This document shows, piece by piece, positions 19,087 to 34,874 of a stretch of 41,096 bases of DNA. Source of the stretch: Weissella muntiaci (lineage in GTDB: Bacteria > Bacillota > Bacilli > Lactobacillales > Lactobacillaceae); assembly GCF_008107635.1 (NCBI RefSeq), contig NZ_SDGZ01000025.1:1-41096 (forward strand), in the 5' to 3' direction. The notes below the pieces were generated by a model. It saw only the letters and a program-made list of their open reading frames with translations, was not told where the DNA came from and did no database searches. Position numbers and translations under genes: made by a program. Within the stretch, counting starts at the first letter, position 1. Every line of letters starts with the position of its first letter.

Positions 19087-19115
19087 AAAAAGTAGAGAAC
19101 TCTACTTTTCTACTT
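19087..19115. repeat. Intercistronic AGTAGA hairpin repeat, copy 1
   Basis: AAAAGTAGA-GAAC-TCTACTTTT, with one extra CTACTTT unit on the right. This copy has loop GAAC, between the GTTT and AAAC forms. It follows the PrgE-like gene and is joined directly to an AGCAACC-type terminator. Confidence 0.85.
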
Positions 19116-19120
19116 TGCAC

Positions 19121-19152
19121 AAGCAACCTGAATCGAATAGGTTGCTTTTTTA
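19121..19152 (+). terminator. Intrinsic terminator inside the transfer region (AGCAACC family)
   Basis: AAGCAACCT pairs with AGGTTGCTT, followed by a T run. It stands between the PrgE-like and VirB2-like genes although both point the same way, so it may attenuate rather than end transcription. Confidence 0.75.
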
Positions 19153-19171
19153 TTTTGAGGAGAAGAAAAAC

Positions 19172-19399
19172 ATGGAAATTGTTATTAAACTAGTTACCGC
19201 GTTAGGGACCGTTGGTGTAGTTATTGGTCTTTTTGCGGTTTATACCGGTTATATGAAATTCTCAACAGGGCAGAAGAATGATAATGGCCCAGCTGTTGAT
19301 CAAGGAATCCAATCAATGGTATTAGGTGGAGTTATGGCTGCAATGAGTGGTGGTATTGCAGCAACTATTATCGCTGCACTAAACAATCTGCCAAAGTAG
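19172..19399 (+). CDS. Small two-helix membrane protein, PrgF/VirB2-like
   Basis: 75 aa from ATG 19172, chosen for GAGGAGAAG just upstream; the frame is open from 19115 but lacks a site there. Two hydrophobic segments (LVTALGTVGVVIGLFAVYTGY and MVLGGVMAAMSGGIAATIIAAL) enclose a polar loop. This is the shape of VirB2-type pilin-like subunits and of pCF10 PrgF. It stands first in the channel gene series, directly before the VirB6-like gene, which supports the call. Confidence 0.65.
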   Translation: MEIVIKLVTALGTVGVVIGLFAVYTGYMKFSTGQKNDNGPAVDQGIQSMVLGGVMAAMSGGIAATIIAALNNLPK

Positions 19400-19408
19400 G
19401 TGTGTTGA

Positions 19409-20188
19409 ATGAACGTAGACAAAGATACGCTTAACAAATTGCTTTCTAGTCTTAAATCATATAATCCGACAGCTAACACGTTTTCTGAGGCTGTTGCTAA
19501 GGTTGTGTTGCCCGTTGCGATAATTATTGTTGGCATTATGTGGTATATGGACTTTGTTGATGTGAAGAAGCAATTAACGAGTAGTGACGCGAATATGGGT
19601 TTCGAATTTTGGATTCAAAGTAGTATGAAATATGTTATTGGAATTATGTTGATCACATTTTCTCCAATGTTAATAGACGCAGTGATGTACATCTCATCTG
19701 TTATAGGACACCTGATTAATTCAGTTAGTCTACAAGGTGGTCACGGGAGTGTTAGTATTCCAGAGATTACAAAGAAAGCGCATGGTTGGGAAAAGTTTGT
19801 AATTGGGTGGCTCCAATCTGTTGGAAGAATTGGACTTTGGACTAACCAGATAATTGCAAAGCTCCTAATTTTTTTAAGATTTTTAATGTTGTACGTCATG
19901 AAAGCAGTAGCTCCAATTATGATTGCTTCGTATGTAAGTGACGAATTTAAATCCGTTGCAATAGGATATATCAAACAATTTACTGCGTTAATAATTCAGG
20001 GTTTTGTGCTGTTATTAATTTTGAAGATCTATCCGGTGTTAATTAACAATGACATTTTCAATGTGGCAGCAAGCGGTGACGTGGCTCAGAATCTTGCGGC
20101 AATGTTCTTAGTAATCGCAAAGGCATTTGTAATTGCTGCAACATTAATTGGATCCCAAGTATTAACAAGACGTTGGATGGGGGTTTAA
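19409..20188 (+). CDS. VirB6/PrgH-like polytopic channel protein
   Basis: 259 aa with about five membrane segments, near residues 28-50, 72-105, 150-178, 190-212 and 225-250. The segment arrangement is that of VirB6/TrbL-type inner-membrane channel proteins; pCF10 PrgH occupies the same place, just before PrgI and the VirB4 ATPase. It starts 9 bp after the small VirB2-like gene. It would form the membrane route for the DNA-relaxase complex. Confidence 0.75.
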   Translation: MNVDKDTLNKLLSSLKSYNPTANTFSEAVAKVVLPVAIIIVGIMWYMDFVDVKKQLTSSDANMGFEFWIQSSMKYVIGIMLITFSPMLIDAVMYISSVIGHLINSVSLQGGHGSVSIPEITKKAHGWEKFVIGWLQSVGRIGLWTNQIIAKLLIFLRFLMLYVMKAVAPIMIASYVSDEFKSVAIGYIKQFTALIIQGFVLLLILKIYPVLINNDIFNVAASGDVAQNLAAMFLVIAKAFVIAATLIGSQVLTRRWMGV

Positions 20189-20191
20189 GAC

Positions 20192-20554
20192 ATGGCTTTA
20201 CAATCAGAGTTTCATCCGGATTTATCAAAAATTGAACCGATTGTTTGGAAAAGTTTGACAAAATCTCAGTTGATTATGATCGTTCAGATCATACCAGCGA
20301 TTGCAGTAATAGGTGTTGAACTTTTTGTGATTAAGGGCTTCATGTTTTATATTACGGCATTTCTAACTGGCACGTTGTTTGTTGTACCCGCGTTTCTAAA
20401 GGGTACAGGACGGTTGGAAGCTGCAAAAGCAAACTGGTTTTTTAACATGAAAATTCAAGAACGATATTACAGTAGTGGACAAATAAGGAAGTATACAGCA
20501 GATGAGTTTATTCAAAAAAAAGAAGTCAAAGAAACTGACAGTTTCACAAATTAG
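20192..20554 (+). CDS. prgI: PrgI-family type IV secretion protein
   Basis: 120 aa with the PrgI-family layout: a soluble start (FHPDLSKIEPIVWKSLTKSQ), two adjacent membrane helices (about 28-70, joined near FVIKGFMFY), then an amphipathic tail with the motif PAFLKGTGRLEAAK and an arginine/tyrosine stretch. The family acts like VirB3 together with the VirB4 ATPase. Its end overlaps the VirB4 start by 53 bases, so the two are probably coupled in translation. Confidence 0.85.
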   Translation: MALQSEFHPDLSKIEPIVWKSLTKSQLIMIVQIIPAIAVIGVELFVIKGFMFYITAFLTGTLFVVPAFLKGTGRLEAAKANWFFNMKIQERYYSSGQIRKYTADEFIQKKEVKETDSFTN

Positions 20555-22874
20555 GAAGCAAGAACGGCTAAGGAAAACAGCTCCAACAACCCAAAATACA
20601 ATCAAATACACATCTCAATTTCAAAATGGACTAATGCACATTGTTGAAAATGAATATTCTAAAATGTGGAAGTTGGGAAAAATAGATTATGAAGTAGTAT
20701 CACGAGAAGATCAGGAAAATGTTGCAGTTAGTTATGCGAATGCCCTTAATGTATTGGATAAGGACTCCAGGTATCAACTGATAACTGTCAATAAGCGACT
20801 CGGAACTAGTGTTTTGGACGGCATTTTAATTGAGCCACAAGGTGACGGTTTCGACGATTATCGCAATGAGATGAATGAGATTGTTCTAAGTCGATATAGT
20901 CAAGATCAGAAAAACTTTGAAGCTACAAATTATATGGTACTGACTAAGGAAGCCAGAGACAGTAAACAAGCCAATAGGTTGCTTAATAATTTGCATAGTA
21001 AGTTTGACAAAGAATTTAACGATACTGATCTAGGATTAGGGTTTCAAGAATTAGACGGTATGGATAGATTAAAGATCATGAATAGTATTTTGAGGCCTGG
21101 GTACGAGTTCACAGTTGACTATAAAGACATGGCAATAAGTGGACTAAATAGTAAGTCATTCATTGCACCGAACCGTTTAGAATTTAAGGATTCGTATTTT
21201 AAAATTAATGGAAAATTTGGTGCTGTACTTTATATACGTGAATATCCAAAGAACCTAGAGGATCGATTGATACAGAAGCTAACTGATTCGGGACACGAGT
21301 TGGTTATTAGTATTCATGCTAGGCCTTATAATATGGTTGAAGCACGTAAGGAAATCAGAAAAAAACAAACTTTGAATAATGCCGAAAAGGTACGTCAGCA
21401 GAAAGAAAATTTTAAAAATGGAATATCCGATGATATGATCGCTGGAAGTGTTTCGGAAATTGGAGAAGCAACAGACGGTTTGAACAATGAATTTCGGGAA
21501 AATGGTCAAAATTTATTTTCAGGCATTTTTACAGTCATGCTGGTTGAAGATACTAAGGATAAGCTCACAGATACAATAGAAAATATTAAAGATATTGGTC
21601 ATGAGGAATCAGTAGACTTTGAAGAGACTTATCAGTTCCAGGAAGAGGCACTAAACACAATTCTGCCAATTGGTAAACCATATCTTGATATTGAACGGAA
21701 TTATATGCGTGACATGACAACAAGTAATGTAGCGATTGAGATACCGTTTACTAATGTTGACCTTCAAAGTCCCACGGGGCAATACTACGGTCAAAATCAA
21801 ATGAGCCATAATTTAATCACAGTCGATCGAAAGCGTGACTTAATCACTCCCTCTGGGCTATATTTGGGGTCTTCTGGGTCGGGTAAGTCGATGAATGTTA
21901 AATGGGGTATGACAACTACGTTGTTAAATCCAGCAAACGCAAACGACAAAACAATTATTGTTGATCCAGAAAGTGAGTATCTAGAGATCGGTAAAGAATT
22001 TGGAGCTGAAATTTTGGATATTTCGTCAGGAACAAATAACCATTTGAATTTGCTTGATTTACCGGATAAAAACCTTTTGCAAAAGGAAGATCAAAATGTT
22101 GATGTTGTTAAAGAAAAGGCAAATTTGTTGGCCGGATTATTCGCTTCAATTTTGAATGATTTCACAGATGAAGAAGCAAGTATTGTTGACCGCGTAACAA
22201 GATTAACTTATGAGCGTTTTGCTGATGTTAATAGAACTCCGACCTTAGTTGATTGGTACGCTATTCTTAGTGACCAGCCAGAAGATGAAGCAAAGGGATT
22301 GTACATTAAAGTAGAGCCATATACAGTAGGCTCACAAAATATATTTGCTTATGAAACAAATATCAACATGAACGGTAAGTTTTTAATCTTTAATATCAAA
22401 CAGCTAGATGAACGATTAAAGCCATTCGCAATGAAAGTGATTTTAGACCAAATTTGGAAGCAAGTTGTAGCTAACCAAAATAAAATCACTACCTGGTTAT
22501 ACTTTGACGAATTACAGCTTAATTTTGACACAGCTGAAAATGCGGATTGGTTCTGGAAATTGTGGAGCCGTGTGCGTAAATATGGTGCTGTCCCAACTGG
22601 AATTACACAAAATATCTCAACATTATTGGAACAGCCAGCAGGGCGGAAAATGATTTCAAATTCAGAATTTCTTGTACTATTGAGACAGAAAGCGGTTGAT
22701 TTACAGGACTTGACTAAAGTTATCAAAATATCACAGCCGATGCTTAAATATGTTGGTGAAAAGGTGCAGCGTGGAACGGGTCTGATTTCAGCCGGCGGTA
22801 CAGTTGTACCATTTGAGAACCCAATTCCAGAAGATACTAAGCTCTTTGAACTCATGAATACAGATTCTATCTAA
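20502..22874 (+). CDS. virB4: VirB4/PrgJ-type conjugation ATPase
   Basis: 790-aa ATPase that energises the transfer channel from the cytoplasmic face. Walker A GSSGSGKS has its lysine at 462; Walker B LYFDELQL has Asp669-Glu670; TGITQN follows. The N-terminal half is the CagE/VirB4-type domain, with a very basic start (KKKKSKK). The start overlaps prgI by 53 bases and has no clear ribosome binding site, so re-initiation or coupling is likely; a shorter start within the first 45 codons cannot be ruled out. Confidence 0.92.
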   Translation: MSLFKKKKSKKLTVSQIRKQERLRKTAPTTQNTIKYTSQFQNGLMHIVENEYSKMWKLGKIDYEVVSREDQENVAVSYANALNVLDKDSRYQLITVNKRLGTSVLDGILIEPQGDGFDDYRNEMNEIVLSRYSQDQKNFEATNYMVLTKEARDSKQANRLLNNLHSKFDKEFNDTDLGLGFQELDGMDRLKIMNSILRPGYEFTVDYKDMAISGLNSKSFIAPNRLEFKDSYFKINGKFGAVLYIREYPKNLEDRLIQKLTDSGHELVISIHARPYNMVEARKEIRKKQTLNNAEKVRQQKENFKNGISDDMIAGSVSEIGEATDGLNNEFRENGQNLFSGIFTVMLVEDTKDKLTDTIENIKDIGHEESVDFEETYQFQEEALNTILPIGKPYLDIERNYMRDMTTSNVAIEIPFTNVDLQSPTGQYYGQNQMSHNLITVDRKRDLITPSGLYLGSSGSGKSMNVKWGMTTTLLNPANANDKTIIVDPESEYLEIGKEFGAEILDISSGTNNHLNLLDLPDKNLLQKEDQNVDVVKEKANLLAGLFASILNDFTDEEASIVDRVTRLTYERFADVNRTPTLVDWYAILSDQPEDEAKGLYIKVEPYTVGSQNIFAYETNINMNGKFLIFNIKQLDERLKPFAMKVILDQIWKQVVANQNKITTWLYFDELQLNFDTAENADWFWKLWSRVRKYGAVPTGITQNISTLLEQPAGRKMISNSEFLVLLRQKAVDLQDLTKVIKISQPMLKYVGEKVQRGTGLISAGGTVVPFENPIPEDTKLFELMNTDSI

Positions 22875-22886
22875 AGGAGGCTAAAT

Positions 22887-25445
22887 ATGAGTGAGGAGCA
22901 AGAGCCTAAACTCAAACGGGCTTTTAAAGATAGTAAGGATTTTAGAAGCGATGTGAAAGATCGTATTGGTAACAATAAATTTGTTAAGCCAAGAGAAGCT
23001 ACTAAGGTTACTAAAGATTCATTTGTTAAGGCAAAGAAAGAATTAAAGGAAGAAAAATCAGCGTTCAAGGAAGCCAAAAGGGACGCTAAGAAATTTAATT
23101 CTGAGGAGCCAATAAAGAAATCTAAAAAAATGAAGGAAGCTGAACGTGAGAGACGGCTCAGTAAGAAAGTGTACCGACGTACCAAGAAAAACGATACAAG
23201 CAGGCTATCTAACAAAGCCAAACGAGCCACTAAATATCAGGCCAAAAATTTTGCGAGTAATAAGACACAACAAAAGCTTCAGGAAGATGACACGCTGGCT
23301 TCTGCGATCGAGGCAAAACGCCATATTCGTCAGGCAAAAAGGTATTATCAACAATCGAAACCAGTTGTAAAACTAGCTAATAAAGGCGTTCGAACTACTT
23401 ATCATTTTGCTGATAAGACGCAAAATATGTTTCGTGGGAAAGGGTTTCAATCTACACCAGATCAACTAAAAACAAGAAACAAATTGCGTCGAGCAATGCA
23501 AAAGAAAATTGCGACGTCAAAAAAGGCTACGACAGCGACTAAGGGACTATCCAAGATAGTCTCTTTTTTTAAAAAGAAAACAAAGGTCAAAGCCTATTCT
23601 TTGGGAATAGTAATCTTGCTGTGTATTTCATTTTTTATGGGCGGAGCACTTGGCGGTAATATGGCAATATACCAAGAGGATAAGGATTTAACTGATTCGT
23701 GGACGTATTTATCATACGTAGACGCTCAGCACTCTAGCTCAGGTAATGTGTTCTACTCAAAATTGGACGATGTAATGTTCTATATGAACTATCGTTTTGA
23801 GGATTATTCACTAAACGATGTAATGGATCCAGGGACACATATTGGTACTTATAAAGGCTACCTGAATGATATTTGGAAAGGTCTAAATGGATCAGAGTTG
23901 AAGTACGAACTAAATACTATGGATAACCTGGAGAAAGACAAAAATTCGCCTTTCAAGTTAGATTCAGATGATTATGAGGAAATGAAAGAAATTGATGATG
24001 ACACAGGTTATACAGATTTATCAAACCAACTGGATTTTCCGATTGATACTGATAATTTAATAGTTAGTCATCGTTACGGCTATGAACGAAATGGTGAAGA
24101 TATTAAGTTACGAGACAATATTGACGCGGTTACTACTGCTCAACAAAACGTTAAGGCACCTTTAAACGGTAAGATTGAATTACCAGCAAAAAAGGGTCAG
24201 TTAATAATTACTGATGGGAAAGACGTAAGATTAACCTTTACTGGAGTAACAACTGACCGTTTTGTTGGCGGAGAAAAGGTAAAATCGGGCGACGTTGTGG
24301 GCCAAGTCACAGGTACTACTTTAAACATCAAGTATGAAAAATATGACGACGATGATAAAAAATGGTTTACAGTCAATCCAGGCTTCTACTTTCCGAAAGT
24401 CACATATACTCAGTTCACAACCCTTGCAAGTTCAGATTTTAGTCCGACAGGAGACGTATCAAAGCGCGCTCAACAAATTTATGATTACCTTTCAAAGTTG
24501 GGATATACAAAAGAGGGTATTGCAGCAATGATTGGAAACTTTGATGTTGAAAGCCATATCACAGCTAAGCGTGCAGAGGGAGACTACTTGAAGCCACCAG
24601 TTGGAGCAAGTGACAGCTCTTGGGACGATCCTAATTGGTTAGCTATGGGTGGGCCAGAAATATACAACGGGCGTTTTTCCAATATCAAACATCGAGGCTT
24701 GGGATTGGGTCAGTGGACTGATACTGGTGACGGTGGTAATCGACACACCTTGTTATTAAACTATGCTGGTAGTAAAGGTAAGCCCTGGTATGATTTAGGT
24801 TTGCAAATTGATTTCATGTTAAATGGCGACAATCCAGGGTCACAAACGGCATTAAAAAATGTGTTGTCGAGAAAAGCAGGATCAACGATCCCAGCGCTCA
24901 CTCAATACTTCCTAATATTTTATGAGGGGAATCCTGGAGATAAATTAGCTCAACGTATTCAATCAGCAACGAACTGGTATAACTACTTTAATAACAATGG
25001 TGGATCCCATTTAGGAGAATCTGGTCAAAAAGTATTTGACGCATATAAAGATAAAATTCAACCTGAACCAACGAATAAAGAACAGAAAGACGGTTATCCT
25101 GGGAACGCGTACGCGCTTGGAAACTGTACTTGGTATGTCTATAATAGAGAAGCACAGCTTGGCCATAGTATTAACCCCTATATGGGTAATGGTGGTGAGT
25201 GGTCGCGAAACTATACAAAGACACCAGGAGCGAGCTTAACGGGTAATCCACAACGTGGAGATATAGCGGTTTTCAATGGTGGAGTTGCAAGTACGTCGGC
25301 ACAATACGGTCACGTTGCGGTTGTAGAATACGTTAATCCAGACGGTAGCTTTGTTGTATCAGAGATGAATTATGGCGGGATATACATTATGAATTGGCGC
25401 GTTCTGAATAAGCAACCAGGTATTTCATTTATTCATTTAGGTTAG
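22887..25445 (+). CDS. prgK: PrgK-like cell-wall hydrolase (degenerate LytM, lysozyme-like, CHAP)
   Basis: 852 aa. A Lys-rich cytoplasmic part (1-230) is followed by one membrane helix (about 235-260). Next comes a LytM-like region (around 390-510) whose zinc ligands look lost: LRDNID stands where the first His should be, and LNIKYEK replaces HxH. A lysozyme/SLT-like domain follows, with Glu555 (FDVESHI) and GLGLGQWT, then a C-terminal CHAP domain with Cys747 (GNCTWY) and His809 (YGHVAVVE). The same three-domain order is known for pCF10 PrgK, which opens the peptidoglycan for the channel. AAAGGAGG precedes the ATG. Confidence 0.9.
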   Translation: MSEEQEPKLKRAFKDSKDFRSDVKDRIGNNKFVKPREATKVTKDSFVKAKKELKEEKSAFKEAKRDAKKFNSEEPIKKSKKMKEAERERRLSKKVYRRTKKNDTSRLSNKAKRATKYQAKNFASNKTQQKLQEDDTLASAIEAKRHIRQAKRYYQQSKPVVKLANKGVRTTYHFADKTQNMFRGKGFQSTPDQLKTRNKLRRAMQKKIATSKKATTATKGLSKIVSFFKKKTKVKAYSLGIVILLCISFFMGGALGGNMAIYQEDKDLTDSWTYLSYVDAQHSSSGNVFYSKLDDVMFYMNYRFEDYSLNDVMDPGTHIGTYKGYLNDIWKGLNGSELKYELNTMDNLEKDKNSPFKLDSDDYEEMKEIDDDTGYTDLSNQLDFPIDTDNLIVSHRYGYERNGEDIKLRDNIDAVTTAQQNVKAPLNGKIELPAKKGQLIITDGKDVRLTFTGVTTDRFVGGEKVKSGDVVGQVTGTTLNIKYEKYDDDDKKWFTVNPGFYFPKVTYTQFTTLASSDFSPTGDVSKRAQQIYDYLSKLGYTKEGIAAMIGNFDVESHITAKRAEGDYLKPPVGASDSSWDDPNWLAMGGPEIYNGRFSNIKHRGLGLGQWTDTGDGGNRHTLLLNYAGSKGKPWYDLGLQIDFMLNGDNPGSQTALKNVLSRKAGSTIPALTQYFLIFYEGNPGDKLAQRIQSATNWYNYFNNNGGSHLGESGQKVFDAYKDKIQPEPTNKEQKDGYPGNAYALGNCTWYVYNREAQLGHSINPYMGNGGEWSRNYTKTPGASLTGNPQRGDIAVFNGGVASTSAQYGHVAVVEYVNPDGSFVVSEMNYGGIYIMNWRVLNKQPGISFIHLG

Positions 25446-25464
25446 GTTAATTGGAAAGGATGTT

Positions 25465-25485
25465 AAAAGTAGAAAACTCTACTTT
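25465..25485. repeat. Intercistronic AGTAGA hairpin repeat, copy 2
   Basis: AAAAGTAGA-AAAC-TCTACTTT between the PrgK-like and PrgL-like genes. It is the shortest form, with no tandem units, and has the AAAC loop. Confidence 0.85.
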
Positions 25486-25501
25486 AATTGGGTATTAAAT
25501 T

Positions 25502-26224: not shown

Positions 26225-26233
26225 GAGTAAATA

Positions 26234-26428: not shown

Positions 26429-26433
26429 TAGCA

Positions 26434-26462
26434 AAGCAATCTCAATTGAGGTTGCTTTTTTT
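26434..26462 (+). terminator. Intrinsic terminator (AGCAACC family)
   Basis: AGCAATCTCAA pairs with TTGAGGTTGCT (one wobble), followed by seven T. It ends the channel gene block after the PrgM-like gene, although the next gene continues in the same direction. Confidence 0.85.
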
Positions 26463-26481
26463 ACATACCTAGGAGGTTATA

Positions 26482-27768: not shown

Positions 27769-27770
27769 AT

Positions 27771-27800
27771 AAAAGTAGAGAAGTAGAGTTTTCTACTTTT
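27771..27800. repeat. Intercistronic AGTAGA hairpin repeat, copy 3
   Basis: AAAAGTAGAGA then AGTAGA-GTTT-TCTACTTTT, with one tandem unit and the GTTT loop. It lies 2 bp after the coiled-coil gene's stop and before the Fic gene. Confidence 0.85.
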
Positions 27801-27855
27801 TATACTTGAATAGGGTAAACTAGGGTTAATAAATTAATTGGACTGGAGCGAGACT

Positions 27856-28572
27856 ATGGTTTTAGATAATAAATTAAATATTACTGATCAGGTTGAACTT
27901 AGCCGTAAGGAAGAGTTAATTAGTAAGACACGTGCTAAGCAATTGTTTGATACGGGCGAAATTAACAATGTTGAGGTTGGGACTTTTAAAGGCCTTGCAT
28001 TAATTCATAAGTACCTTTTCGATGATATATATGATTTTGCGGGTCAAATTCGCAACGTAAACATCGCTAAGGGTAATTTCCAGTTTGTCCCACGTATTTA
28101 CCTTGAACCAGCTTTAAAAGCCATTGATAAGCTCCCACAGAGCAATTTCAATGAGATTGTTGAGAAGTATGTTGAAATGAACGTGGCCCACCCATTTAGA
28201 GAGGGTAATGGCCGCAGTACAAGAATTTGGCTTGACCTGGTATTTAAAAAAGAACTAGGTAAGGTTGTTGATTGGCAAAAGGTAGATAAAGAAGATTATT
28301 TATTAGCAATGGAGCGTAGCCCCATTAAAGATACTGAGATCAAGGTGTTGTTAAACGACGCAATGACCACAGAAATTAATGATCGCCAAATCTACATGAA
28401 GGGTATCGACGCAAGTTATTTCTATGAGGGTTACTTTGAGTACCCTACTGAATCGTTGAAGTCGATCGAGAACAAGTTTGATGAGCGTCTTGCTAAGACA
28501 GAATGGCAAAAGGATTCACAGGTCATAGACCAGGAGCCATTTATTGAAAACGATCTTAAAGCAAGAAAATAA
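27856..28572 (+). CDS. Fic-domain protein (probable AMP-transferase)
   Basis: 238 aa from ATG 27856 (CTGGAG upstream). An in-frame TTG at 27838 is less likely. The complete Fic motif HPFREGNGRSTR stands at 112-123, with His112 as the catalytic base; VNIAKGNFQFVP forms the flap. TRAKQLFDTG near the start and IDASYFYEGY further on are typical of the small Fic class. A clear (S/T)xxxE(G/N) inhibitory helix was not seen, and no antitoxin gene is adjacent. Fic proteins usually AMPylate a target protein. Its place inside the transfer operon suggests an effector or a toxin carried along. Confidence 0.87.
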   Translation: MVLDNKLNITDQVELSRKEELISKTRAKQLFDTGEINNVEVGTFKGLALIHKYLFDDIYDFAGQIRNVNIAKGNFQFVPRIYLEPALKAIDKLPQSNFNEIVEKYVEMNVAHPFREGNGRSTRIWLDLVFKKELGKVVDWQKVDKEDYLLAMERSPIKDTEIKVLLNDAMTTEINDRQIYMKGIDASYFYEGYFEYPTESLKSIENKFDERLAKTEWQKDSQVIDQEPFIENDLKARK

Positions 28573-28584
28573 ATAGATGACAGA

Positions 28585-28613
28585 AACAGGATCTTTCGAG
28601 GTTCTGTTTTTTT
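28585..28613 (+). terminator. Intrinsic terminator after fic, TTCG tetraloop
   Basis: AACAGGATCT pairs with AGGTTCTGTT (two wobbles) around the very stable loop TTCG, followed by seven T. It begins 13 bp after the fic stop. Genes downstream in the same direction would need read-through or their own promoter. Confidence 0.85.
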
Positions 28614-28620
28614 ATTGCAG

Positions 28621-28641
28621 AAAAGTAGAGTTTTCTACTTT
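28621..28641. repeat. Intercistronic AGTAGA hairpin repeat, copy 4
   Basis: AAAAGTAGA-GTTT-TCTACTTT, short form, 8 bp after the fic terminator's T run and before the ribosome binding site of the 82-aa gene. Confidence 0.85.
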
Positions 28642-28663
28642 GTACTTTGAGTTGGAGGATTGT

Positions 28664-28912
28664 ATGACTAGTAAAAGAATTTTAAAAATCACAGGTACGA
28701 ACTTATATATTTTGCAGATTGAGGCCGCAGACACCTTTGTGCTGACCGGTGATCCAGTGATTGCAAGCCCAGCAGACGAAATTTTAAAAGAACCAACGAG
28801 TAAAACAATTTCTGCATATTTTCCAGCAGGAATTGAAGTTGTCAATCAATTAGGCGAGTTACCAAAATATTTGGAAACAGAAGCAGGTATTGGAATATCT
28901 GAAAAGATTTAG
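28664..28912 (+). CDS. Hypothetical protein (82 aa)
   Basis: The start ATG 28664 is chosen for TTGGAGGA just upstream; the open frame extends back through the repeat to 28577, but that part is not a plausible coding region. The protein is mixed (RILKITGTNLYILQIEAAD; TSKTISAYFPAGIEVV) with no membrane segment. No family is recognised. It lies between two hairpin repeats, before pcfB. Confidence 0.55.
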   Translation: MTSKRILKITGTNLYILQIEAADTFVLTGDPVIASPADEILKEPTSKTISAYFPAGIEVVNQLGELPKYLETEAGIGISEKI

Positions 28913-28915
28913 TGA

Positions 28916-28940
28916 TAGAGAAGTAGAGTTTTCTACTTTT
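28916..28940. repeat. Intercistronic AGTAGA hairpin repeat, copy 5
   Basis: TAGAGAAGTAGA-GTTT-TCTACTTTT with a T run, between the 82-aa gene and pcfB. It has part of one tandem unit on the left. Confidence 0.85.
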
Positions 28941-28956
28941 TTTATTGGAGAAAATT

Positions 28957-29475
28957 ATGGAACAAAAAGAAGTTATTCATAAAATATCAGTTGGCTCAAA
29001 TATGACTATTCGGGCAACGGTACAGTTGTTAGATCAGATAGAAAATTGGTTAAGTGACACGATTAAGTCACATATCAATACAACAATGGTGGGCGAGCAA
29101 CCGTTGTATAAGTTGCTAAATAATTCAAATAGTCCTTTAACGTCAGAATTGGTCAATGAATCCGTTAGCCTGGATAAGCTAAAGGAATACTTGAATGAAC
29201 AAGGCTTAGCTTTTGCATTTAAGGAAAACAAGGACGGCAGCCGAAATTTGTTCTTTAAAGTCCAGGATAAAGAACTTGCATTTAAAGCCCTGGAGAATGT
29301 TAAGAACGATATGCTAAGCAATCCCGACGGTGTAGCTAACAGAATCGTTAAGGATCCTACTAAAGTGACCTTTGCTGAAAAGGTTGCAATTGCCCTGGAA
29401 GATCAACGCAAATTACCAAAGCAAAATGCACCAGAGATCAAGGTTAATACACCAGAGATCGGAGGTATTAAGTAA
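28957..29475 (+). CDS. pcfB: PcfB-family adaptor protein (DUF3801)
   Basis: 172 aa from ATG 28957, after TTGGAGAAA. Family features include the N-terminal helical part (MTIRATVQLLDQIENWL), the KLKEYLNEQGLAFAF region, and KVQDKELAFKALENV. PcfB binds the coupling protein PcfC in pCF10 and helps dock the substrate. Its stop overlaps the start of the VirD4 gene (TAATG), which supports a stoichiometric partnership. Confidence 0.85.
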   Translation: MEQKEVIHKISVGSNMTIRATVQLLDQIENWLSDTIKSHINTTMVGEQPLYKLLNNSNSPLTSELVNESVSLDKLKEYLNEQGLAFAFKENKDGSRNLFFKVQDKELAFKALENVKNDMLSNPDGVANRIVKDPTKVTFAEKVAIALEDQRKLPKQNAPEIKVNTPEIGGIK

Positions 29476-31295
29476 TGCAGACATACAAGAAGAATGGCAA
29501 GATCTATTTTGTTATCAGTATGATATTGGCAGCCGTTGGATTTATATTAGGGAATTGGGTCGTTTCGGCTCCAGGACTGACCGGCCTTGATAAATTTGTC
29601 TACGTAACGTCGAGTTTAGGTTGGCATGAACTAGCTGATCACTTATTGAATTATGTATTCATGTTTAACTGGTGGTCTGTTGGTGCAGCTGGCATCGGAA
29701 TGATCTTAGGAATGTTCTTATACATGTATGGTAACGATCATGGAATCTATCGCGTTGGAGAAGAACATGGTTCAGCGCGTTTTGCTAAACCAGAGGAAAT
29801 GAAAAAGTACCAGGATAAAAATCCTGATAACAATATCATTTTTACAGAGAATGCTCAAATGGGATTGTTTAACCGCAACCTTGATCGAGATGCGCAACGA
29901 AATAAAAACACTGTTGTCATTGGAGGCCCTGGTGCAGGTAAAACATTTAACTATGTCAAACCAAATATTATGCAGATGAACGCTAGTTTTGTCACCACTG
30001 ACCCAAAAGACTTATTGGTACATGAAATGGGTCAAATGCTTGAAGACAATGGCTATAAGGTCAAAGTTTTTGACTTGGCCAGCTTAGGTGAATCAACTGG
30101 CTTTAATTCAGATACATTTAACGTGTTCAATTACATGAAAACAGAACTAGATATTGATCGAGTTTTGGAATCGATCACAGAAAGTACGAAAAAAGGCGAT
30201 AAGGGCGGTGAAGACTTTTGGGTACAAGCAGAAGCAACGTTGATTCGTGCTTTTATAGGCTATCTATGGTTTGACGGTCGCGAGAATGACTACACGCCAC
30301 ATTTGGGTATGGTTGCAGATATGCTTCGGTTTACTGAACGGAAAGACCCAAAGAAGCTAAGCCCTGTTGAAGACTGGTTTGAGGAATTAAACGAGAAAGT
30401 CCCAAATAACTATGCTTACAAGCAATGGCAGAGTTTTAACAATAATTTCCGATCTGAGACTCGTACTAGTGTTATCGCCATCGCGACGGCCAGATATTCA
30501 GTGTTTGATCATGATGATGTGATCGATATGATCAAGCGAGACACAATGGATATTGAATCATGGAACGAGGAAAAGACAGCAGTCTTTATTGGCTTACCTG
30601 AAACTAGTACAGCGTTTAATTTCTTGGCCGCAATCTTTGTTACTACAATCATGGAAACCTTACGTCATAAGGCGGATCGCACGTTGAATGGTACTTATAA
30701 GCCTAAAACGGCAGACGGCCGGTTGTTACACGTGCGGTTTATCCTTGATGAATTTGCCAATATTGGTAAGATCCCTAACGTCGATAAAGCCCTAGCAACA
30801 TTCAGAAGTCGTGAAATGTCAGTTGTGATAATTCTGCAAGCCCTAGATCAATTAAAGGTAATGTACAAAAACGGTTGGGCCTCGATGATCAACTTAGCAG
30901 ATACGTTGTTGTTTCTTGGTGGAGATGAAAAGGAAACGGTTGAGTATCTTTCAAAGCGTGCCGGTAAGCAAACTATTCAATTGAGAAATCATACTGTACA
31001 GAATAGCACTAGAGGCGGCAGCGAGAATCGACAAACACAAGGTCGAGACTTAATGACACCTGATGAAATTGGCCGCCTTCCTGGAGATAATGCTTTGCTT
31101 TTCGTATCACGTGAGTACGTCTATATGGATCATAAGTACAAGGTTACAGATCACAAGTACGCAGATCAGTTGGCTAATGATCCTTATGATCCGAATTGGT
31201 ACAAGTATCGACGCTTTAGAAATGAAACCGAGGAACTGCTATACATGGTTGACCCTGAAAATGTGATCGATCATGGTGAGTTGGAAGTAATCTAA
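29475..31295 (+). CDS. virD4: VirD4/PcfC-type coupling protein
   Basis: 606-aa membrane ATPase that brings the relaxase-DNA complex to the channel. Two N-terminal membrane helices (about 10-30 and 62-85) are followed by HGSARFAKPEE, Walker A GGPGAGKTF (Lys156), TTDPKD, and Walker B RFILDEFANIG (Asp425-Glu426). DEFANIGKIPN and LQALDQLKVMYK are typical of TraG/VirD4 proteins. The start overlaps pcfB. Its stop abuts the longest AGTAGA repeat array. Confidence 0.94.
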   Translation: MQTYKKNGKIYFVISMILAAVGFILGNWVVSAPGLTGLDKFVYVTSSLGWHELADHLLNYVFMFNWWSVGAAGIGMILGMFLYMYGNDHGIYRVGEEHGSARFAKPEEMKKYQDKNPDNNIIFTENAQMGLFNRNLDRDAQRNKNTVVIGGPGAGKTFNYVKPNIMQMNASFVTTDPKDLLVHEMGQMLEDNGYKVKVFDLASLGESTGFNSDTFNVFNYMKTELDIDRVLESITESTKKGDKGGEDFWVQAEATLIRAFIGYLWFDGRENDYTPHLGMVADMLRFTERKDPKKLSPVEDWFEELNEKVPNNYAYKQWQSFNNNFRSETRTSVIAIATARYSVFDHDDVIDMIKRDTMDIESWNEEKTAVFIGLPETSTAFNFLAAIFVTTIMETLRHKADRTLNGTYKPKTADGRLLHVRFILDEFANIGKIPNVDKALATFRSREMSVVIILQALDQLKVMYKNGWASMINLADTLLFLGGDEKETVEYLSKRAGKQTIQLRNHTVQNSTRGGSENRQTQGRDLMTPDEIGRLPGDNALLFVSREYVYMDHKYKVTDHKYADQLANDPYDPNWYKYRRFRNETEELLYMVDPENVIDHGELEVI

Positions 31296-31364
31296 AAGTA
31301 GAGAAGTAGAGAAGTAGAGAAGTAGAGAAGTAGAGAAGTAGAGAAGTAGAGTTTTCTACTTTTT
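31294..31364. repeat. Intercistronic AGTAGA hairpin repeat, copy 6, with 8-bp tandem array
   Basis: Six perfect tandem copies of GTAGAGAA (31298-31345) run into a seventh, GTAGA, that forms the hairpin AGTAGA-GTTT-TCTACT. The array overlaps the TAA of virD4. Such a perfect array is prone to length change by slippage. Confidence 0.95.
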
Positions 31365-31384
31365 AATTTGAAAGGGGAATTAAC

Positions 31385-31933
31385 ATGAAAAACATTAATG
31401 TTCGTTTACGCGCCTGGAGTTTAGAAGCAGTTGGCTACACAAATATCACAGCATTTAATACAAATACAAATGGTGAGATAGTTACTGTGGATGTGAAGTT
31501 GCCAAACAAAAGCTTTCCGAACCAGCCAGAGGATTTGTATGATATTGAACGTTGGACTGGTGAGTTTGAAAAAGGATCAGGTAGTAATAAGTCAATTTAT
31601 GAACATGATATTTTACTTTATGTATATCCTGGCAAGGAGAAGAATACGTCTACTGTTTTTGTTGGGGCAGTGATTGAAGAGGACAATCAATGGGTTGTAA
31701 CGGACGGATTAACTAAAGCTACTCCATTGCATAAGATCATGAGTACAAACGATTCACTTGTTGACGTGGTTAGTAATTTACATGAAGCAGTTGAGACCTT
31801 GTATGAGGATCGCGTTGATGAATATTTAGTTGAATTGGAAAAGGACACGCCCATTGAATACTTTATTGAACCAACTATTAAACAATGCAGAGAAGCAATC
31901 CACAAAGAATTGTCGCCATATATGAAAAAGTAG
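31385..31933 (+). CDS. YopX-like protein
   Basis: 182 aa. The segment YDIERWTGEFEKGSGSNKS-IYEHDILLY resembles the family hallmark (QYTGLKD...GKEIYEGDIV) of YopX-domain proteins from phages and plasmids, and the start NVRLRAWS fits the usual IRAWD. The C-terminal half is helical. Function of the family is unknown. Its TAG stop lies inside the following AGTAGA repeat, so the last lysines are encoded by repeat sequence. Confidence 0.6.
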   Translation: MKNINVRLRAWSLEAVGYTNITAFNTNTNGEIVTVDVKLPNKSFPNQPEDLYDIERWTGEFEKGSGSNKSIYEHDILLYVYPGKEKNTSTVFVGAVIEEDNQWVVTDGLTKATPLHKIMSTNDSLVDVVSNLHEAVETLYEDRVDEYLVELEKDTPIEYFIEPTIKQCREAIHKELSPYMKK

Positions 31934-31959
31934 AGAAGTAGAGTTTTCTACTTTTCTAC
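31925..31959. repeat. Intercistronic AGTAGA hairpin repeat, copy 7
   Basis: AAAAAGTAGAGA then AGTAGA-GTTT-TCTACT, with an extra TTTCTAC on the right. The TAG at 31931-31933 ends the YopX-like gene. It is followed by an AGCAACC-type terminator, as in copy 1. Confidence 0.9.
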
Positions 31960-31966
31960 CAAGCAA

Positions 31967-31992
31967 AGCAACCTTAACTGGTTGCTTTTTTA
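31967..31992 (+). terminator. Intrinsic terminator (AGCAACC family)
   Basis: AGCAACC-TTAACT-GGTTGCT, followed by a T run, between the YopX-like and the Toprim gene. Confidence 0.85.
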
Positions 31993-32007
31993 TTTGGAGG
32001 AAAGGAC

Positions 32008-33153
32008 ATGAATTATCATTCGTTAAAGGAACGTCAAGAAGCGTATAACACAGCAAGACAAATGAATATCCTCGATGTGGCCCAATCCCTGGGCATGGAT
32101 ATGAAGAAGATTGGTTCAGGAAAGGAATATGAATGGCGAGATCACGACGCTTTAAAAATCACCCCAGCCTGGAACCATTTTAACTATTACTCACAGACAG
32201 ATGAAAACGGAGAACGAGTGCATGGTGGCCCGATTCAATTAGTCCAAGAGATTCAACATGTGAGTTTTGGTGAGGCGGTTGCGTTTCTAACTGGTCAAGA
32301 TATTGAGAAGTTTAAATACGTACCCGTTGAACGCAAAGAATTTGAGTATAAGTTCAAGGAACACGAGTATACAGATTTAACAGTTGAATATCTAACCAAG
32401 GAACGTGGCATTTCACAAAGCACTGTTAAGAACTTGCTTAAACGTGGACTAATAGCTCAGACAAACTTTACTACCGATTTTGAGAATCATAAATCCGAGC
32501 CGGTTGTTGTTTTTAAGAGTATCGACGCAAAAGGTGTTGTCAAAGGAGTTTCATTACAAGGCATTTGGGCCAAGGAGGAATATGGTCAACGTGGTCATTT
32601 AAAACGGACGCTAGGAGACGGTAATCAAGGTATGGTATTGAAAGTTGGTAATCCTGATTTATCTAACGCCACGCCAGAAAATCCATATACAGTCTTTGTA
32701 TTTGAAGCTCCAATCGATATGTTGAGTTATTACGACTTATTCAAAGACAACCTAAACAATGCTGTACTTGTGGCTATGAACGGTAAGAAGCCGGTTGTGA
32801 TCAGCAATGTATTAGCAGACGCCATTAATCCAAACGCTCGACCTGAGCTAAAAGAGAAAGCCCTGGAGACAGTCGATAAGAATATGCGATCGGATATATT
32901 CAAGATCGTATTTGCTGTTGATAATGACGTACATGGAATTGAGTTTATCGACAAAATCAACATCGAGAATATTCCAGTTGTACGTCATTTACCCAAGATG
33001 TTACCTGGTAAAGAAAAGACGGATTGGAACGATATGTTGAGGTATGTAAGATCTAAGGCTAAGACAAACTCTTTTGAAGCAAGGCTGAATAAGGCACAAG
33101 CAGATAATACTGGATCAGTTCAGCCAGAAAAAATGGCAGCGAAATCAATTTAA
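32008..33153 (+). CDS. DUF3991/Toprim protein, primase-like
   Basis: 381 aa. The N-terminal part (about 15-100) has DUF3991-like features (ILDVAQSLGMDMKK ... YEWRDHDALKITP ... FGEAVAFLTG), and a helical region holds TVKNLLKRGLI. The Toprim domain has Glu233 (FVFEAPIDMLS) and Asp305-x-Asp307 (FAVDNDVHG). Such proteins on conjugative plasmids are thought to prime or process the transferred strand. It has no helicase domain. TTTGGAGGAAAGG precedes the ATG. Confidence 0.82.
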   Translation: MNYHSLKERQEAYNTARQMNILDVAQSLGMDMKKIGSGKEYEWRDHDALKITPAWNHFNYYSQTDENGERVHGGPIQLVQEIQHVSFGEAVAFLTGQDIEKFKYVPVERKEFEYKFKEHEYTDLTVEYLTKERGISQSTVKNLLKRGLIAQTNFTTDFENHKSEPVVVFKSIDAKGVVKGVSLQGIWAKEEYGQRGHLKRTLGDGNQGMVLKVGNPDLSNATPENPYTVFVFEAPIDMLSYYDLFKDNLNNAVLVAMNGKKPVVISNVLADAINPNARPELKEKALETVDKNMRSDIFKIVFAVDNDVHGIEFIDKINIENIPVVRHLPKMLPGKEKTDWNDMLRYVRSKAKTNSFEARLNKAQADNTGSVQPEKMAAKSI

Positions 33154-33165
33154 ATAACGAAGTGG

Positions 33166-33195
33166 AAAAGTAGAGAAGTAGAAAACTCTACTTTT
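33166..33195. repeat. Intercistronic AGTAGA hairpin repeat, copy 8
   Basis: AAAAGTAGAGA then AGTAGA-AAAC-TCTACTTTT, AAAC-loop form with one tandem unit, between the Toprim gene and the 160-aa gene. Confidence 0.9.
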
Positions 33196-33223
33196 GTCAG
33201 GAAAACGAAATGAGGAAGAAGTT

Positions 33224-33706
33224 ATGTTATATGGAAATTTAGATGATCTAATGGCAATTGACGACGGTATTAAAGACTTGTACCTAAAACGTCAAGGTCT
33301 TGAAACAAACTACGTGCATTTAAATGACCAAATTTTAAATTTGGATCTTAAAATGATCGATCAACGGCAGTTCATTCAACATCACCCTAATAGCTTTTCG
33401 GGTACGCTCGAGAAGCGCGCCCTAAACAGAAATAAAAATGAATATCAGGAATTGGTTAAGCAAAAAGAATCAATTCAAAATGAGTACAAAGAAGTCAATC
33501 AACAATTAGAAACTCGACTTGATTCAGCATACAAACAGGAATTTGGTTTCAAACAAAGTGTTCGTGAGGCAGTTGATAAACAAGCGGCGAAGCAAACGGC
33601 AAGTAAATCAACCCCGTTTAGTGATCGAGTTGAACAGGCACAGGCAGCACAAAAATCAGTGGGACAAAATACAGAGGTCAAAGAAGCAGCTAAGACAATG
33701 AAGTAG
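33224..33706 (+). CDS. Coiled-coil hypothetical protein (160 aa)
   Basis: ATG 33224 is used, with TGAGGAAG upstream; an in-frame TTG at 33194 would start inside the repeat. The protein is helical and rich in Gln, Lys and Glu (ALNRNKNEYQELVKQKESIQ and on). Its C-terminal part KSTPFSDRVEQAQAAQKSV resembles linker segments that recur in the element (compare FEERVSEAQQVVKA in the ArdC-like protein). No family is recognised. The TAG stop comes from repeat copy 9. Confidence 0.6.
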   Translation: MLYGNLDDLMAIDDGIKDLYLKRQGLETNYVHLNDQILNLDLKMIDQRQFIQHHPNSFSGTLEKRALNRNKNEYQELVKQKESIQNEYKEVNQQLETRLDSAYKQEFGFKQSVREAVDKQAAKQTASKSTPFSDRVEQAQAAQKSVGQNTEVKEAAKTMK

Positions 33707-33745
33707 AAAAGTAGAGAAGTAGAAAACTCTACTTTTCTACTTTTT
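33700..33745. repeat. Intercistronic AGTAGA hairpin repeat, copy 9 (extended arms)
   Basis: Left arm AAAAGTAGAGAAGTAGA, loop AAAC, right arm TCTACTTTTCTACTTTT. The two arms pair over about 17 bp with one wobble, making this the most stable copy. The TAG at 33704-33706 is the stop of the upstream gene. Confidence 0.92.
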
Positions 33746-33766
33746 CAAATAATCGCGGAGTAAGTT

Positions 33767-34852
33767 ATGAATCAGAAATCGATTAAGGGTTTGAAAAAGG
33801 AAATCGTCCGAGAGAGCGCACTAGAAGTGGGATATTACGAAGGTACTCGTGAAGCAATAATGGTCGCCGCACCAGATATTCTAGAGAAAGTTATGGCAAG
33901 CGATGTTGCTGGGTATCTAACAAAATTGGCGACCAACAATGACATTGGTTTTGATAATTTGTTTGTTTCAGAAGCAGTCAGGTTAATGAGTTACTCAGAG
34001 TTTAAACAGGTAGCCCACAAGTTCTTTGGCTACACCAGGACAAATGAAGAAATCTTAGCTGAGCCTATTACATTATCGCGGGCCGCCTATGAGAATCTTC
34101 AAGAAAGAGCAGAAAACAATTTTATGAATAAAACAACTAGCAAAGCAATAAGCACAAAAAGTTTGGAGATCCAGGCTGAAAATGAACCAGTGGCATACAA
34201 TCCATTAACAGAGGAGATTGCATACCTGGTATCAGATAGCAGCAATGCAGTGCCTTATTTTGACGAGAATTTGATCAGTAATTACAAGAGTGAACAGCCT
34301 GAATTAAGTTTGATTCTTGCGAAAATTAAATCCCACGTGAGTCCGGATTTGTATCAGCAGATTCATTCGTTTTTGCAAGGTATGGATCCAATTGGCTCGT
34401 CAAAAGATCCAGTGTTTATGGAAACTTTTGTTGAGTTGGCTAACCAAGTATTAGAAGCTAATGATCAACAAATTATTCAGCACTCGGCACAAGATCAGGC
34501 TACGAATGAATCATGGCAGTTACATTATTTCCTTGATCAAAATACAATGCCAGGTATCAATAAAGACGAAGTTATCAATTACTTGGAGCACGAGGTTGCT
34601 GCATATTATCGTGGTAGTTTGGCTGAGTTGAGGATCTTTGATAAAGACGACGTGGAGGTTGAAAGTTATTTAGTTGATCGAGATACCTTTATAGGTAATG
34701 AGATTAATCAGGTTAAGTCGTATACACAAAACGATAATTATGTTGACCTAGCTACCGGCTTTAAATTACAAAACTTAGGTGTAGAGATTACACCAGAGGT
34801 TTTGAATGATTTTCTTAACGCTGAACCAAAACAAAGTAATTTAAAAAAGTAG
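33767..34852 (+). CDS. Hypothetical protein (361 aa)
   Basis: A largely helical soluble protein, acidic, without signal or membrane segment. The N-terminal part (VRESALEVGYYEGTREAIMV) and the C-terminal part (EVINYLEHEVAAYYRGSLAE; TGFKLQNLGVEITPEVLNDF) seem to be separate domains, joined by a Thr/Ser-rich stretch near 125-150. No family is recognised. The last lysines and TAG stop come from repeat copy 10. It probably belongs to DNA processing or its control, given the neighbours. Confidence 0.6.
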   Translation: MNQKSIKGLKKEIVRESALEVGYYEGTREAIMVAAPDILEKVMASDVAGYLTKLATNNDIGFDNLFVSEAVRLMSYSEFKQVAHKFFGYTRTNEEILAEPITLSRAAYENLQERAENNFMNKTTSKAISTKSLEIQAENEPVAYNPLTEEIAYLVSDSSNAVPYFDENLISNYKSEQPELSLILAKIKSHVSPDLYQQIHSFLQGMDPIGSSKDPVFMETFVELANQVLEANDQQIIQHSAQDQATNESWQLHYFLDQNTMPGINKDEVINYLEHEVAAYYRGSLAELRIFDKDDVEVESYLVDRDTFIGNEINQVKSYTQNDNYVDLATGFKLQNLGVEITPEVLNDFLNAEPKQSNLKK

Positions 34853-34874
34853 AGAAGTAGAAAACTCTACTTTT
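34842..34874. repeat. Intercistronic AGTAGA hairpin repeat, copy 10
   Basis: AAAAAAGTAGAGA then AGTAGA-AAAC-TCTACTTTT, AAAC-loop form. The TAG at 34850-34852 ends the 361-aa gene. It is the last copy found in the element. Confidence 0.9.

What the first reader, a model, noticed from the sequence alone, without database searches (positions are those of the whole stretch)
19087..34874. Ten-copy intercistronic hairpin repeat family confined to the transfer region
Hairpins built on AGTAGA-loop-TCTACT with flanking A and T runs occur at 19087, 25465, 27771, 28621, 28916, 31294, 31925, 33166, 33700 and 34842. Every copy lies between two genes; no intact copy was found inside a gene or elsewhere in the window. 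They separate channel, adaptor, coupling and DNA-processing genes, i.e. they punctuate the polycistronic transfer region. Possible roles: mRNA processing or stability signals, attenuators, binding sites of an element-encoded regulator, or a small self-spreading repeat. I know of no described family with this sequence, though I could not search.
Basis: partly seen in the sequence, partly recalled or inferred. Interest (0 to 1): 0.8.

Follow-up and report, generated by a model that had tools for sequence, protein, structure and literature searches.

The report
Dispersed partition-like repeats between transfer genes
Ten near-identical short repeat clusters really do sit between the DNA-transfer genes of a mobile element in a Weissella-type bacterium, and they look most like the docking sites that plasmids normally keep beside their DNA-sorting genes, here scattered through the transfer operon instead.

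Summary
Ten palindromic clusters lie in gaps of a prg/pcf-type transfer operon; 0.01 pattern matches are expected by chance. Each follows one grammar of 8-bp units, (AAGTAGAR)k - 2 nt - (YTCTACTT)m, k 1-7, m 1-2. The syntenic operon of Weissella oryzae has 8 clusters at matching junctions, although 4-fold sites are only 39% identical, so the unit sequence is probably recognised. The element seems integrated in comFA; it is not shown to be a plasmid. Best explanation (0.42): dispersed centromere/operator sites for the ParB-like protein at 13505-13843, a Gram-positive parallel to KorB operators. RNA-level punctuation is a serious rival (0.3): clusters hug stop codons, and forward units predominate in 11 of 12 asymmetric clusters. 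All 3 transfer genes missing or replaced in W. oryzae are cluster-bounded. Binding is untested, and the ParB fold prediction is low-confidence.

The parts
19090..19115 (+). cluster E1, prgE-like | prgF-like genes, k=1 m=2, centre GAAC; followed by an intrinsic terminator
   Evidence: W. oryzae counterpart at contig position 24409
25467..25484 (+). cluster E2, prgK-like lysozyme | prgL-like, k=1 m=1, centre AAAC
   Evidence: counterparts in W. oryzae (30770) and L. inhae (13481-13522)
27773..27798 (+). cluster E3, pcfA-like | fic, k=2 m=1, centre GTTT
   Evidence: W. oryzae 33383
28623..28640 (+). cluster E4, fic | ORF 28649 (likely start 28664), k=1 m=1, centre GTTT
   Evidence: no separate counterpart in W. 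oryzae, where no match to ORF 28649 was found
28921..28938 (+). cluster E5, ORF 28649 | pcfB-like DUF3801, k=1 m=1, centre GTTT
   Evidence: W. oryzae 34192
31296..31361 (+). cluster E6, pcfC/VirD4 | ORF 31385, k=7 m=1, centre GTTT
   Evidence: W. oryzae 36559
31928..31953 (+). cluster E7, ORF 31385 | pcfD-like toprim, k=2 m=1 (plus a partial reverse unit), centre GTTT; supplies the TAG stop of ORF 31385; followed by an intrinsic terminator
   Evidence: W. oryzae 36897, where an unrelated ORF ends in the same repeat
33160..33193 (+). cluster E8, toprim | ORF 33194, k=3 (one unit degenerate) m=1, centre AAAC
33701..33742 (+). cluster E9, ORF 33194 | ORF 33767, k=3 m=2, centre AAAC; supplies the TAG stop of ORF 33194
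   Evidence: W. oryzae has one cluster (38130) for E8 and E9 together
34847..34872 (+). cluster E10, ORF 33767 | ORF 34882, k=2 m=1, centre AAAC; supplies the TAG stop of ORF 33767
   Evidence: W. oryzae 39240, L. inhae 20370
12759..13505 (+). ParA ATPase gene
   Evidence: Pfam AAA_31 2.3e-29; 86% identical in W. oryzae, 61% in L. inhae
13505..13843 (+). ParB-like gene; candidate binder of the clusters; C-terminal half reads like a ribbon-helix-helix domain (SIKIK strand, two helices), by eye
   Evidence: no convincing family or PDB match; 68% in W. oryzae; low-confidence model with helices 52-60 and 66-84 and no strand
12098..12448 (+). conserved non-coding leader upstream of the par genes; context, function unknown
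   Evidence: alignment A1; no Rfam match at gathering; 271 nt of it 87% identical in W. oryzae
19121..19147 (+). intrinsic terminator with AAGCAACC/GGTTGCTT stem, just after E1; similar stems at 13852, 26433, 31965 and 35438
   Evidence: four of these five have a W. oryzae counterpart, the fifth (13852) can be read

Best explanation
The ten clusters are arrays of an 8-bp half-site, AAGTAGAR, in direct and inverted repeat with a 2-bp gap at the centre. They are read as double-stranded DNA by a plasmid-partition type protein of the element, most likely the ParB-like protein encoded at 13505-13843. In related systems such arrays sit upstream of parA. Here the par locus has no such array, and the sites are dispersed through the gaps of the transfer operon. 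Bound protein would serve as the centromere when the element is excised and replicating, and would act as a roadblock or repressor that keeps the long transfer operon quiet. Shown here: the arrays, their grammar, their conserved positions, and the same grammar beside parA elsewhere. Inferred: that ParB binds them, that it is a ribbon-helix-helix protein, and both functions.
For: 1) Sequence constraint: each of the 8 W. oryzae clusters keeps the unit at a junction matching the window, while 4-fold sites in five genes are 324 of 839 identical. 57 of 61 units in 18 clusters are perfect; that count is inflated, because clusters were found by allowing one mismatch per unit. 2) Same grammar beside parA: a Planococcus plasmid has 13 cores (T at unit position 8) between primase and parA, 12 with a second reverse unit, mostly 51-53 bp apart. 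Of 398 genomes of the class, 5 have the longer array with up to 1 mismatch: the window's own, three with 7, 9 and 10 copies, one with a single copy; in the three, a ParA 89-91% identical to the Planococcus one lies beside it. Of 2 IMG/VR contigs with that array, one has it, with further units, 67-269 bp upstream of the parA ORF. The six single cores had no par match within about 1.5 kb. 3) No repeat array beside the window or W. oryzae par genes except blocks inside repA. 4) In 395 family genomes the ParB-like protein is convincing only in the window's genome and W. oryzae and weak in L. inhae, the three with several cores in 397. 5) Precedent: omega of pSM19035 binds direct or inverted 7-bp repeats, two at high affinity (PMC9499535, passages); some partition sites are scattered, and KorB recognises inverted repeats in RP4 transfer regions (PMC5016525, passages and a reference title).
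Against: No binding was tested. The profile comparisons of this ParB with the Planococcus and the other par group were not significant (probability 0.3%, E 0.23 and 0.18), and the model is poor (mean pLDDT 57.7). Neither element has a cluster at its own par promoter, where such proteins usually autoregulate; only one unit-like stretch lies in the leader (AAGTAGTG, in W. oryzae AAGTAGAG). Forward units outnumber reverse ones in 11 of 12 asymmetric clusters, which a strand-blind DNA site does not predict. Clusters hug stop codons. In pSM19035 full ParA activation needed four contiguous repeats without a gap; only E6 has that, and only three of ten clusters reach four units even across the centre. 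The other IMG/VR contig has the array at a gene end with no parA in the 13.9 kb held. Co-occurrence is confounded by shared descent of the whole element, and the reversed control pattern reached 5 and 3 places in two genomes, so the four in L. inhae are weak as a count.
Confidence: 0.42

Rival explanations
1. RNA-level punctuation. Transcribed clusters form hairpins, with extra AAGUAGAR units, at intercistronic junctions. They set mRNA ends, stability or elongation, together with the intrinsic terminators of the same operon, perhaps as sites for an element-encoded RNA-binding or antitermination factor.
For: Clusters begin from 6 nt inside to 50 nt after the stop codon and three supply the stop. 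Forward units predominate in 11 of 12 asymmetric clusters. All 18 fold, -7.3 to -24.3 kcal/mol; in E3, E5 and E6 the sense fold is 3.6-7.2 kcal/mol more stable than the antisense one. Two clusters directly precede intrinsic terminators, also in W. oryzae. A conserved leader lies upstream of the par genes. Terminator-rich conjugation operons with antitermination are described (PMC8955417, abstract and passages), as is an RNA target in an intergenic region of pCF10 (PMC8265641, abstract and passages).
Against: The innermost pair is often A.C or G.U, and no compensating changes were seen among the units. Tandem forward units mostly have no partner. The same grammar occurs in arrays between the primase gene and parA. 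In most clusters the antisense fold is about as stable. Terminator-like hits in the region are not more numerous than in shuffles (11 against 8.9, 12 against 8.9).
Confidence: 0.3
2. Recombination seams. Whatever the first role, the identical clusters let homologous recombination insert, delete or swap single genes between them, and this is now their main consequence.
For: Of 20 transfer-region genes, the 3 without a match in W. oryzae (28649, 31385, 33194) are all bounded by clusters on both sides, as 6 of the 20 are (one-sided Fisher p 0.018). Two clusters in the window correspond to one in W. oryzae around 28649 and around 33194. Unrelated ORFs occupy the E6-E7 slot.
Against: One pair of elements carries the count. 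An inserted gene could bring its own cluster. E1, E2 and E10 adjoin no such gene. It does not explain unit conservation.
Confidence: 0.12
3. Selfish or slippage-driven small repeat that spread among gaps because gaps tolerate it.
For: 8-bp unit numbers differ at matching junctions; one array has 7 forward units; an 11th core lies inside umuC.
Against: Positions conserved between diverged elements; one core elsewhere in the genome and one weaker hit elsewhere in a 133-kb contig.
Confidence: 0.06
4. Sites for another element protein: the HTH protein at 9696, the small basic protein at 12449-12733, or ORF 33767.
For: Each has a match in W. oryzae and L. inhae.
Against: No link to parA-adjacent arrays elsewhere was seen; no DNA-binding family for the last two.
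Confidence: 0.07

Closest known systems
parA-adjacent repeat array of Planococcus plasmid NZ_CP025124.1
   Different: 13 cores mostly 51-53 bp apart in one place upstream of parA, T at unit position 8; the window has 10 clusters dispersed over 16 kb of the transfer operon and none at parA
pSM19035 omega / parS (PMC9499535, PMC5016525: passages)
   Same: Short direct and inverted repeats bound by a ribbon-helix-helix ParB; several separate sites; partition and transcription roles together
   Different: 7-bp WATCACW units, 7-10 per site, overlapping promoters, not between transfer genes
RP4/RK2 KorB operators (a passage and a reference title in PMC5016525; details recalled)
   Same: Partition/regulator sites scattered over a conjugative element, including transfer regions
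   Different: KorB is a helix-turn-helix ParB with 13-bp palindromes (recalled); no 8-bp tandem units
pAD1 RepB/RepC iterons TAGTARRR (recalled; the searches did not retrieve the source)
   Same: 8-bp repeats with a similar AGTARRR core in a pheromone plasmid
   Different: Flank the rep/par genes; not known to be intercistronic in the transfer operon (recalled)
conAn-type operons of pLS20 (PMC8955417, abstract and passages)
   Same: Long Gram-positive conjugation operon with internal terminators
   Different: No such repeat clusters in the passages read; conAn homology was not tested
Promoter early stem-loops of T4-type phages (recalled; one search did not retrieve the source)
   Same: Repeated intercistronic hairpins that coincide with gene shuffling
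   Different: Carry phage early promoters; different sequence and host (recalled)

Membership tests
RHH-type (type Ib) partition site array | Tandem and/or inverted short repeats of fixed period | tested here: met
   8-bp period in all 18 clusters of two elements; 57 of 61 units perfect, a count inflated by how clusters were found
RHH-type (type Ib) partition site array | ParA gene on the same element | tested here: met
   AAA_31 ParA at 12759-13505
RHH-type (type Ib) partition site array | Cognate ParB has a ribbon-helix-helix fold | tested here: inconclusive
   Motif by eye only; no convincing family hits; model mean pLDDT 57.7; profile comparisons not significant
RHH-type (type Ib) partition site array | Array lies at the par locus or a par promoter | tested here: not met
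   No array at 9.5-14 kb of the window outside repA, nor at the W. oryzae par locus
RHH-type (type Ib) partition site array | ParB binds the repeats and they confer stability | not testable with these tools
   needs gel shift, ChIP-seq and stability assays
Intrinsic terminators | GC-rich stem followed by a U tract | tested here: not met
   The consensus scans listed none of the ten clusters; a looser scan of mine flagged five of them as weak (27773, 28600 over E4, 28920, 31336, 33714)
Known RNA families (Rfam) | Match to a curated covariance model at the gathering score | tested here: not met
   Window scan gave only 5S rRNA and tRNA
conAn antitermination operon | ConAn1 protein and conAn2 RNA at the operon start | not tested
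   A conserved leader and small protein exist, but no conAn sequence was compared

The most novel reading that the evidence does not exclude
A Gram-positive counterpart of the KorB/operator network: a partition ParB whose centromere has been dismantled and spread, one cluster per junction, through the conjugation operon, so that one protein segregates the element and silences transfer, while the identical clusters serve as seams at which accessory transfer genes are exchanged.
Probability: 0.28. Interest if true: 0.75.

Novelty: new variant of a known kind. Interest (0 to 1): 0.52.

Why it matters
If correct, it links plasmid partition and conjugation control through one repeat and one small protein in a lactic acid bacterium, and gives a ready set of ten natural sites of graded size (2 to 8 units) for measuring array-length effects. 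It would also suggest how single accessory genes come and go inside a conserved secretion operon. If the RNA rival is right, it is instead a new punctuation signal in long Gram-positive transfer operons.

Tried and rejected
Free mobility: disfavoured by conserved positions and scarcity elsewhere.

Intrinsic terminators: none of the ten clusters was listed by the stricter scans.

Cas12a-type repeat: rejected because the arms are in the opposite order (recalled consensus, no call).

General feature of prg/pcf operons: in 11 other such regions, several of them partial, no family like this appeared among the six commonest hairpin arms per region. Some A/T-rich arms did reach 4-6 places against 1-3 in four shuffles (L018, L019, L106, L107 and L104); I did not check whether they lie in gaps. 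In Carnobacterium (L104) the AAAGTA/AAGTAT arms lie mainly around parA.

PrgU-type control: the ORF at 14851 has no family match in NCBIfam or PHROGs.

Replication iterons: a repeat block inside repA at 10604-10692 is unrelated to the clusters.

L042 (51% GC phage-like contig): one array at a gene end, no parA in the 13.9 kb held, no second core with up to 2 mismatches in the 38-kb record. This counts against the par reading.

The umuC copy may be chance. A tblastn of that protein against the W. oryzae contig printed no alignment.

Novelty searches: listings only, no paper on this repeat among those listed; many subscription papers are not held.
Full report
OBSERVATION. The ten copies are real. 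The pattern AGTAGAN(2-12)TCTACT matches at ten places in the window; 0.01 matches are expected and 0 of 100 shuffles reach the observed 16 overlapping matches. Read by units, each copy is (AAGTAGAR)k - 2 nt - (YTCTACTT)m with k from 1 to 7 and m 1 or 2. All ten midpoints fall in gaps that make up 4.7% of the region; three copies overlap the preceding gene by 6 nt and provide its TAG stop. The gene starts in that script are my choice: three are approximate, and the copy at 28623 is in a gap only if the following gene starts at 28664 and not at the earliest ATG, 28577. In the whole genome (2.29 Mb, 35 contigs) there is one more exact core, on contig C20 inside a umuC-like gene.

SETTING. The gene order is that of prg/pcf operons. 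The names (PrgE, F, H, I, K, L, M, PcfA-D and so on) come from annotations of such plasmids and from memory, the homologies; VirB4 is 54% identical to that of pTEF2. Upstream are RepA_N, ParA and a ParB-like gene. The window also holds a 5S rRNA and a tRNA. A helicase gene that I take for comFA (no call names it) ends early at 9562; its missing end can be read on C20 after position 3680. The ends of C18 and C20 look like two copies of one IS end (by eye). I infer one element integrated in comFA that runs from the window into C20; their adjacency is not proved.

RELATIVES. Among 28 genomes of the genus, exact cores occur in 2: the window's genome (11) and G017 (7). G017 contig 9 has the length and coordinates of NZ_DF820492.1, Weissella oryzae SG25. 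Its operon is syntenic (VirB4 79%, relaxase 87%, ParA 86% identity) and carries 8 clusters at matching junctions; one further, weaker hit in its 133 kb lies inside parA. L. inhae has degenerate clusters at 3 matching junctions (E2, E8/E9, E10), one further cluster nearby and one weak distant hit. In 397 family genomes, with one mismatch allowed, 18 have a match and 3 have more than one: 11, 8 and 4; the reversed control pattern reached 5 and 3 places in two genomes. In 395 order genomes 7 match, six of them once (one across Ns), while at least four match the reversed control; W. oryzae was not in that sample. Single cores are therefore at chance level.

CONSTRAINT. In five genes compared between the window and W. 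oryzae, 4-fold sites with the same codon family are identical at 324 of 839, close to saturation. Yet every W. oryzae cluster keeps the unit at a junction where the window has it. In the 18 clusters 38 of 40 forward and 19 of 21 reverse units are perfect; because clusters were found by allowing one mismatch per unit, this overstates the conservation. Unit number and centre vary between matching junctions. I take this as evidence that a trans-acting factor recognises the unit sequence, not only a hairpin.

LINK TO PARTITION. A short blastn search of plasmids gave 18 records with weak E-values (2 or 5), among them four Planococcus plasmids with 2 to 10 places. I read one: 13 cores, with T at unit position 8, sit between the primase gene and parA, mostly 51-53 bp apart, 12 of them with a second reverse unit. 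In 398 genomes of the class, the longer array (AAGTAGARAAGTAGANNNNTCTACTT, up to 1 mismatch) occurs in 5; the reversed control found none. In the three, a ParA 89-91% identical to the Planococcus protein lies beside the array; the single copy and the six single cores had no par match within about 1.5 kb. Of 2 IMG/VR contigs with the longer array, one has it and further units 67-269 bp upstream of the parA ORF. The other, a 51% GC phage-like contig, has it at a gene end without a parA in the stretch held. The 18-bp core alone occurs once in each of 32 IMG/VR stretches.

CANDIDATE BINDER. The ParB-like protein (112 aa) reads like a flexible N-terminus followed by a ribbon-helix-helix segment (TRSIKIKELNYDQLGLLK...SYVELLDKAVTQYL). 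That is my reading of the alignments; the Planococcus protein has a similar VKSIKL stretch. It was not confirmed: no convincing Pfam, NCBIfam, PHROGs or PDB match, non-significant profile comparisons, and an AlphaFold model from only two sequences with mean pLDDT 57.7, which shows helices at 52-60 and 66-84 but no strand. Of 395 family genomes 8 match at E 0.01 or better: the window's own, W. oryzae (2e-47), L. inhae weakly (49% over 42 residues) and five others at E 0.003-0.005. It had no tblastn match at E 0.1 in 72,556 plasmids. The window and W. oryzae par loci show no unit array or other tandem repeats apart from blocks inside repA; one unit-like stretch lies in an 11-bp inverted repeat of the leader.

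RNA-LEVEL RIVAL. Clusters begin from 6 nt inside the stop codon to 50 nt after it. Forward units exceed reverse units in 11 clusters, the opposite holds in 1, and 6 are equal (two-sided sign test 0.006, but matching junctions are not independent; for the window alone 6 to 1, 0.125). E7 and its W. oryzae counterpart also have a partial reverse unit that this count ignores. Every cluster folds, at -7.3 to -24.3 kcal/mol in the sense strand; antisense values are mostly similar, but the sense fold is clearly better in E3, E5 and E6. The operon also contains intrinsic terminators with a shared GCAACC/GGTTGC stem at 13852, 19121, 26433, 31965 and 35438, although the number of terminator-like hits as a whole does not exceed that in shuffles. 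Four of the five have W. oryzae counterparts, and the fifth can be read. A conserved leader precedes the par genes; its predicted structure has 11 of 78 pairs with two-sided changes but an unfavourable covariation term, +0.86. Such operons can use processive antitermination (PMC8955417). I give this reading 0.3.

GENE EXCHANGE. Between fic and pcfB, and between toprim and ORF 33767, the window has a gene (28649, 33194) flanked by two clusters where W. oryzae has a single cluster and no matching gene. Between E6 and E7 the two elements carry unrelated ORFs, and both end inside the E7 repeat. The 3 genes without a match in W. oryzae (tblastn, E 1e-3), out of 20, are all cluster-bounded (6 of 20 are; p 0.018). 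One pair of elements cannot prove a mechanism.

GENERALITY. In 11 other prg/pcf-type regions (Enterococcus, Carnobacterium, Lactococcus, Lacticaseibacillus), some of them partial, I saw no comparable family; A/T-rich hairpin arms that reach 4-6 places in five of them were not followed up. Among what was searched, the feature belongs to a Weissella/Leuconostoc branch.

JUDGEMENT. The clusters work like partition/regulator iterons (0.42; lowered from 0.45 when a recount showed only three clusters with four or more units, and one without a gap). They are not filed as a proven partition site: location at the par locus was tested and not met, and the ParB fold is inconclusive. The dispersal through a transfer operon is the new aspect.

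Noticed in passing
window 12098-12448: Non-coding leader upstream of a small basic protein, parA and parB, 87% identical over 271 nt in W. oryzae and alignable in L. inhae; no Rfam family at gathering; 11 of 78 predicted pairs show two-sided changes in three sequences, but the covariation term is unfavourable.
   Followed up: partly
window 13852, 19121, 26433, 31965, 35438: Intercistronic intrinsic terminators sharing a GCAACC/GGTTGC stem inside the operon, four with counterparts in W. oryzae, some with altered paired bases.
   Followed up: partly
window 8597-9562 and L006 around 3680: A helicase gene read as comFA is interrupted: its start is in the window and its end on contig C20, apparently by integration of the element.
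   Followed up: partly
L006 1597-1614: An exact 18-bp core lies in frame near the end of a umuC-like gene on contig C20; chance or function not resolved.
   Followed up: partly
window 10604-10692: Three 23-bp repeats inside repA, possibly the RepA_N-type origin (recalled).
   Followed up: no
L121 753-776 and L076 22565-22605: Related palindromes AAGTAGAA-AAGTATAC occur in an IMG/VR record and beside the par genes of an E. faecium plasmid; Carnobacterium has AAGTATAC palindromes around parA.
   Followed up: partly
L042 9278-9303: A phage-like contig of 51% GC has one (AAGTAGAA)2 array at a gene end, supplying its stop codon, as in the window.
   Followed up: partly
window 23542-23564: Terminator-like hairpin with T run inside the prgK-like gene, also present in W. 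oryzae at 28857.
   Followed up: no
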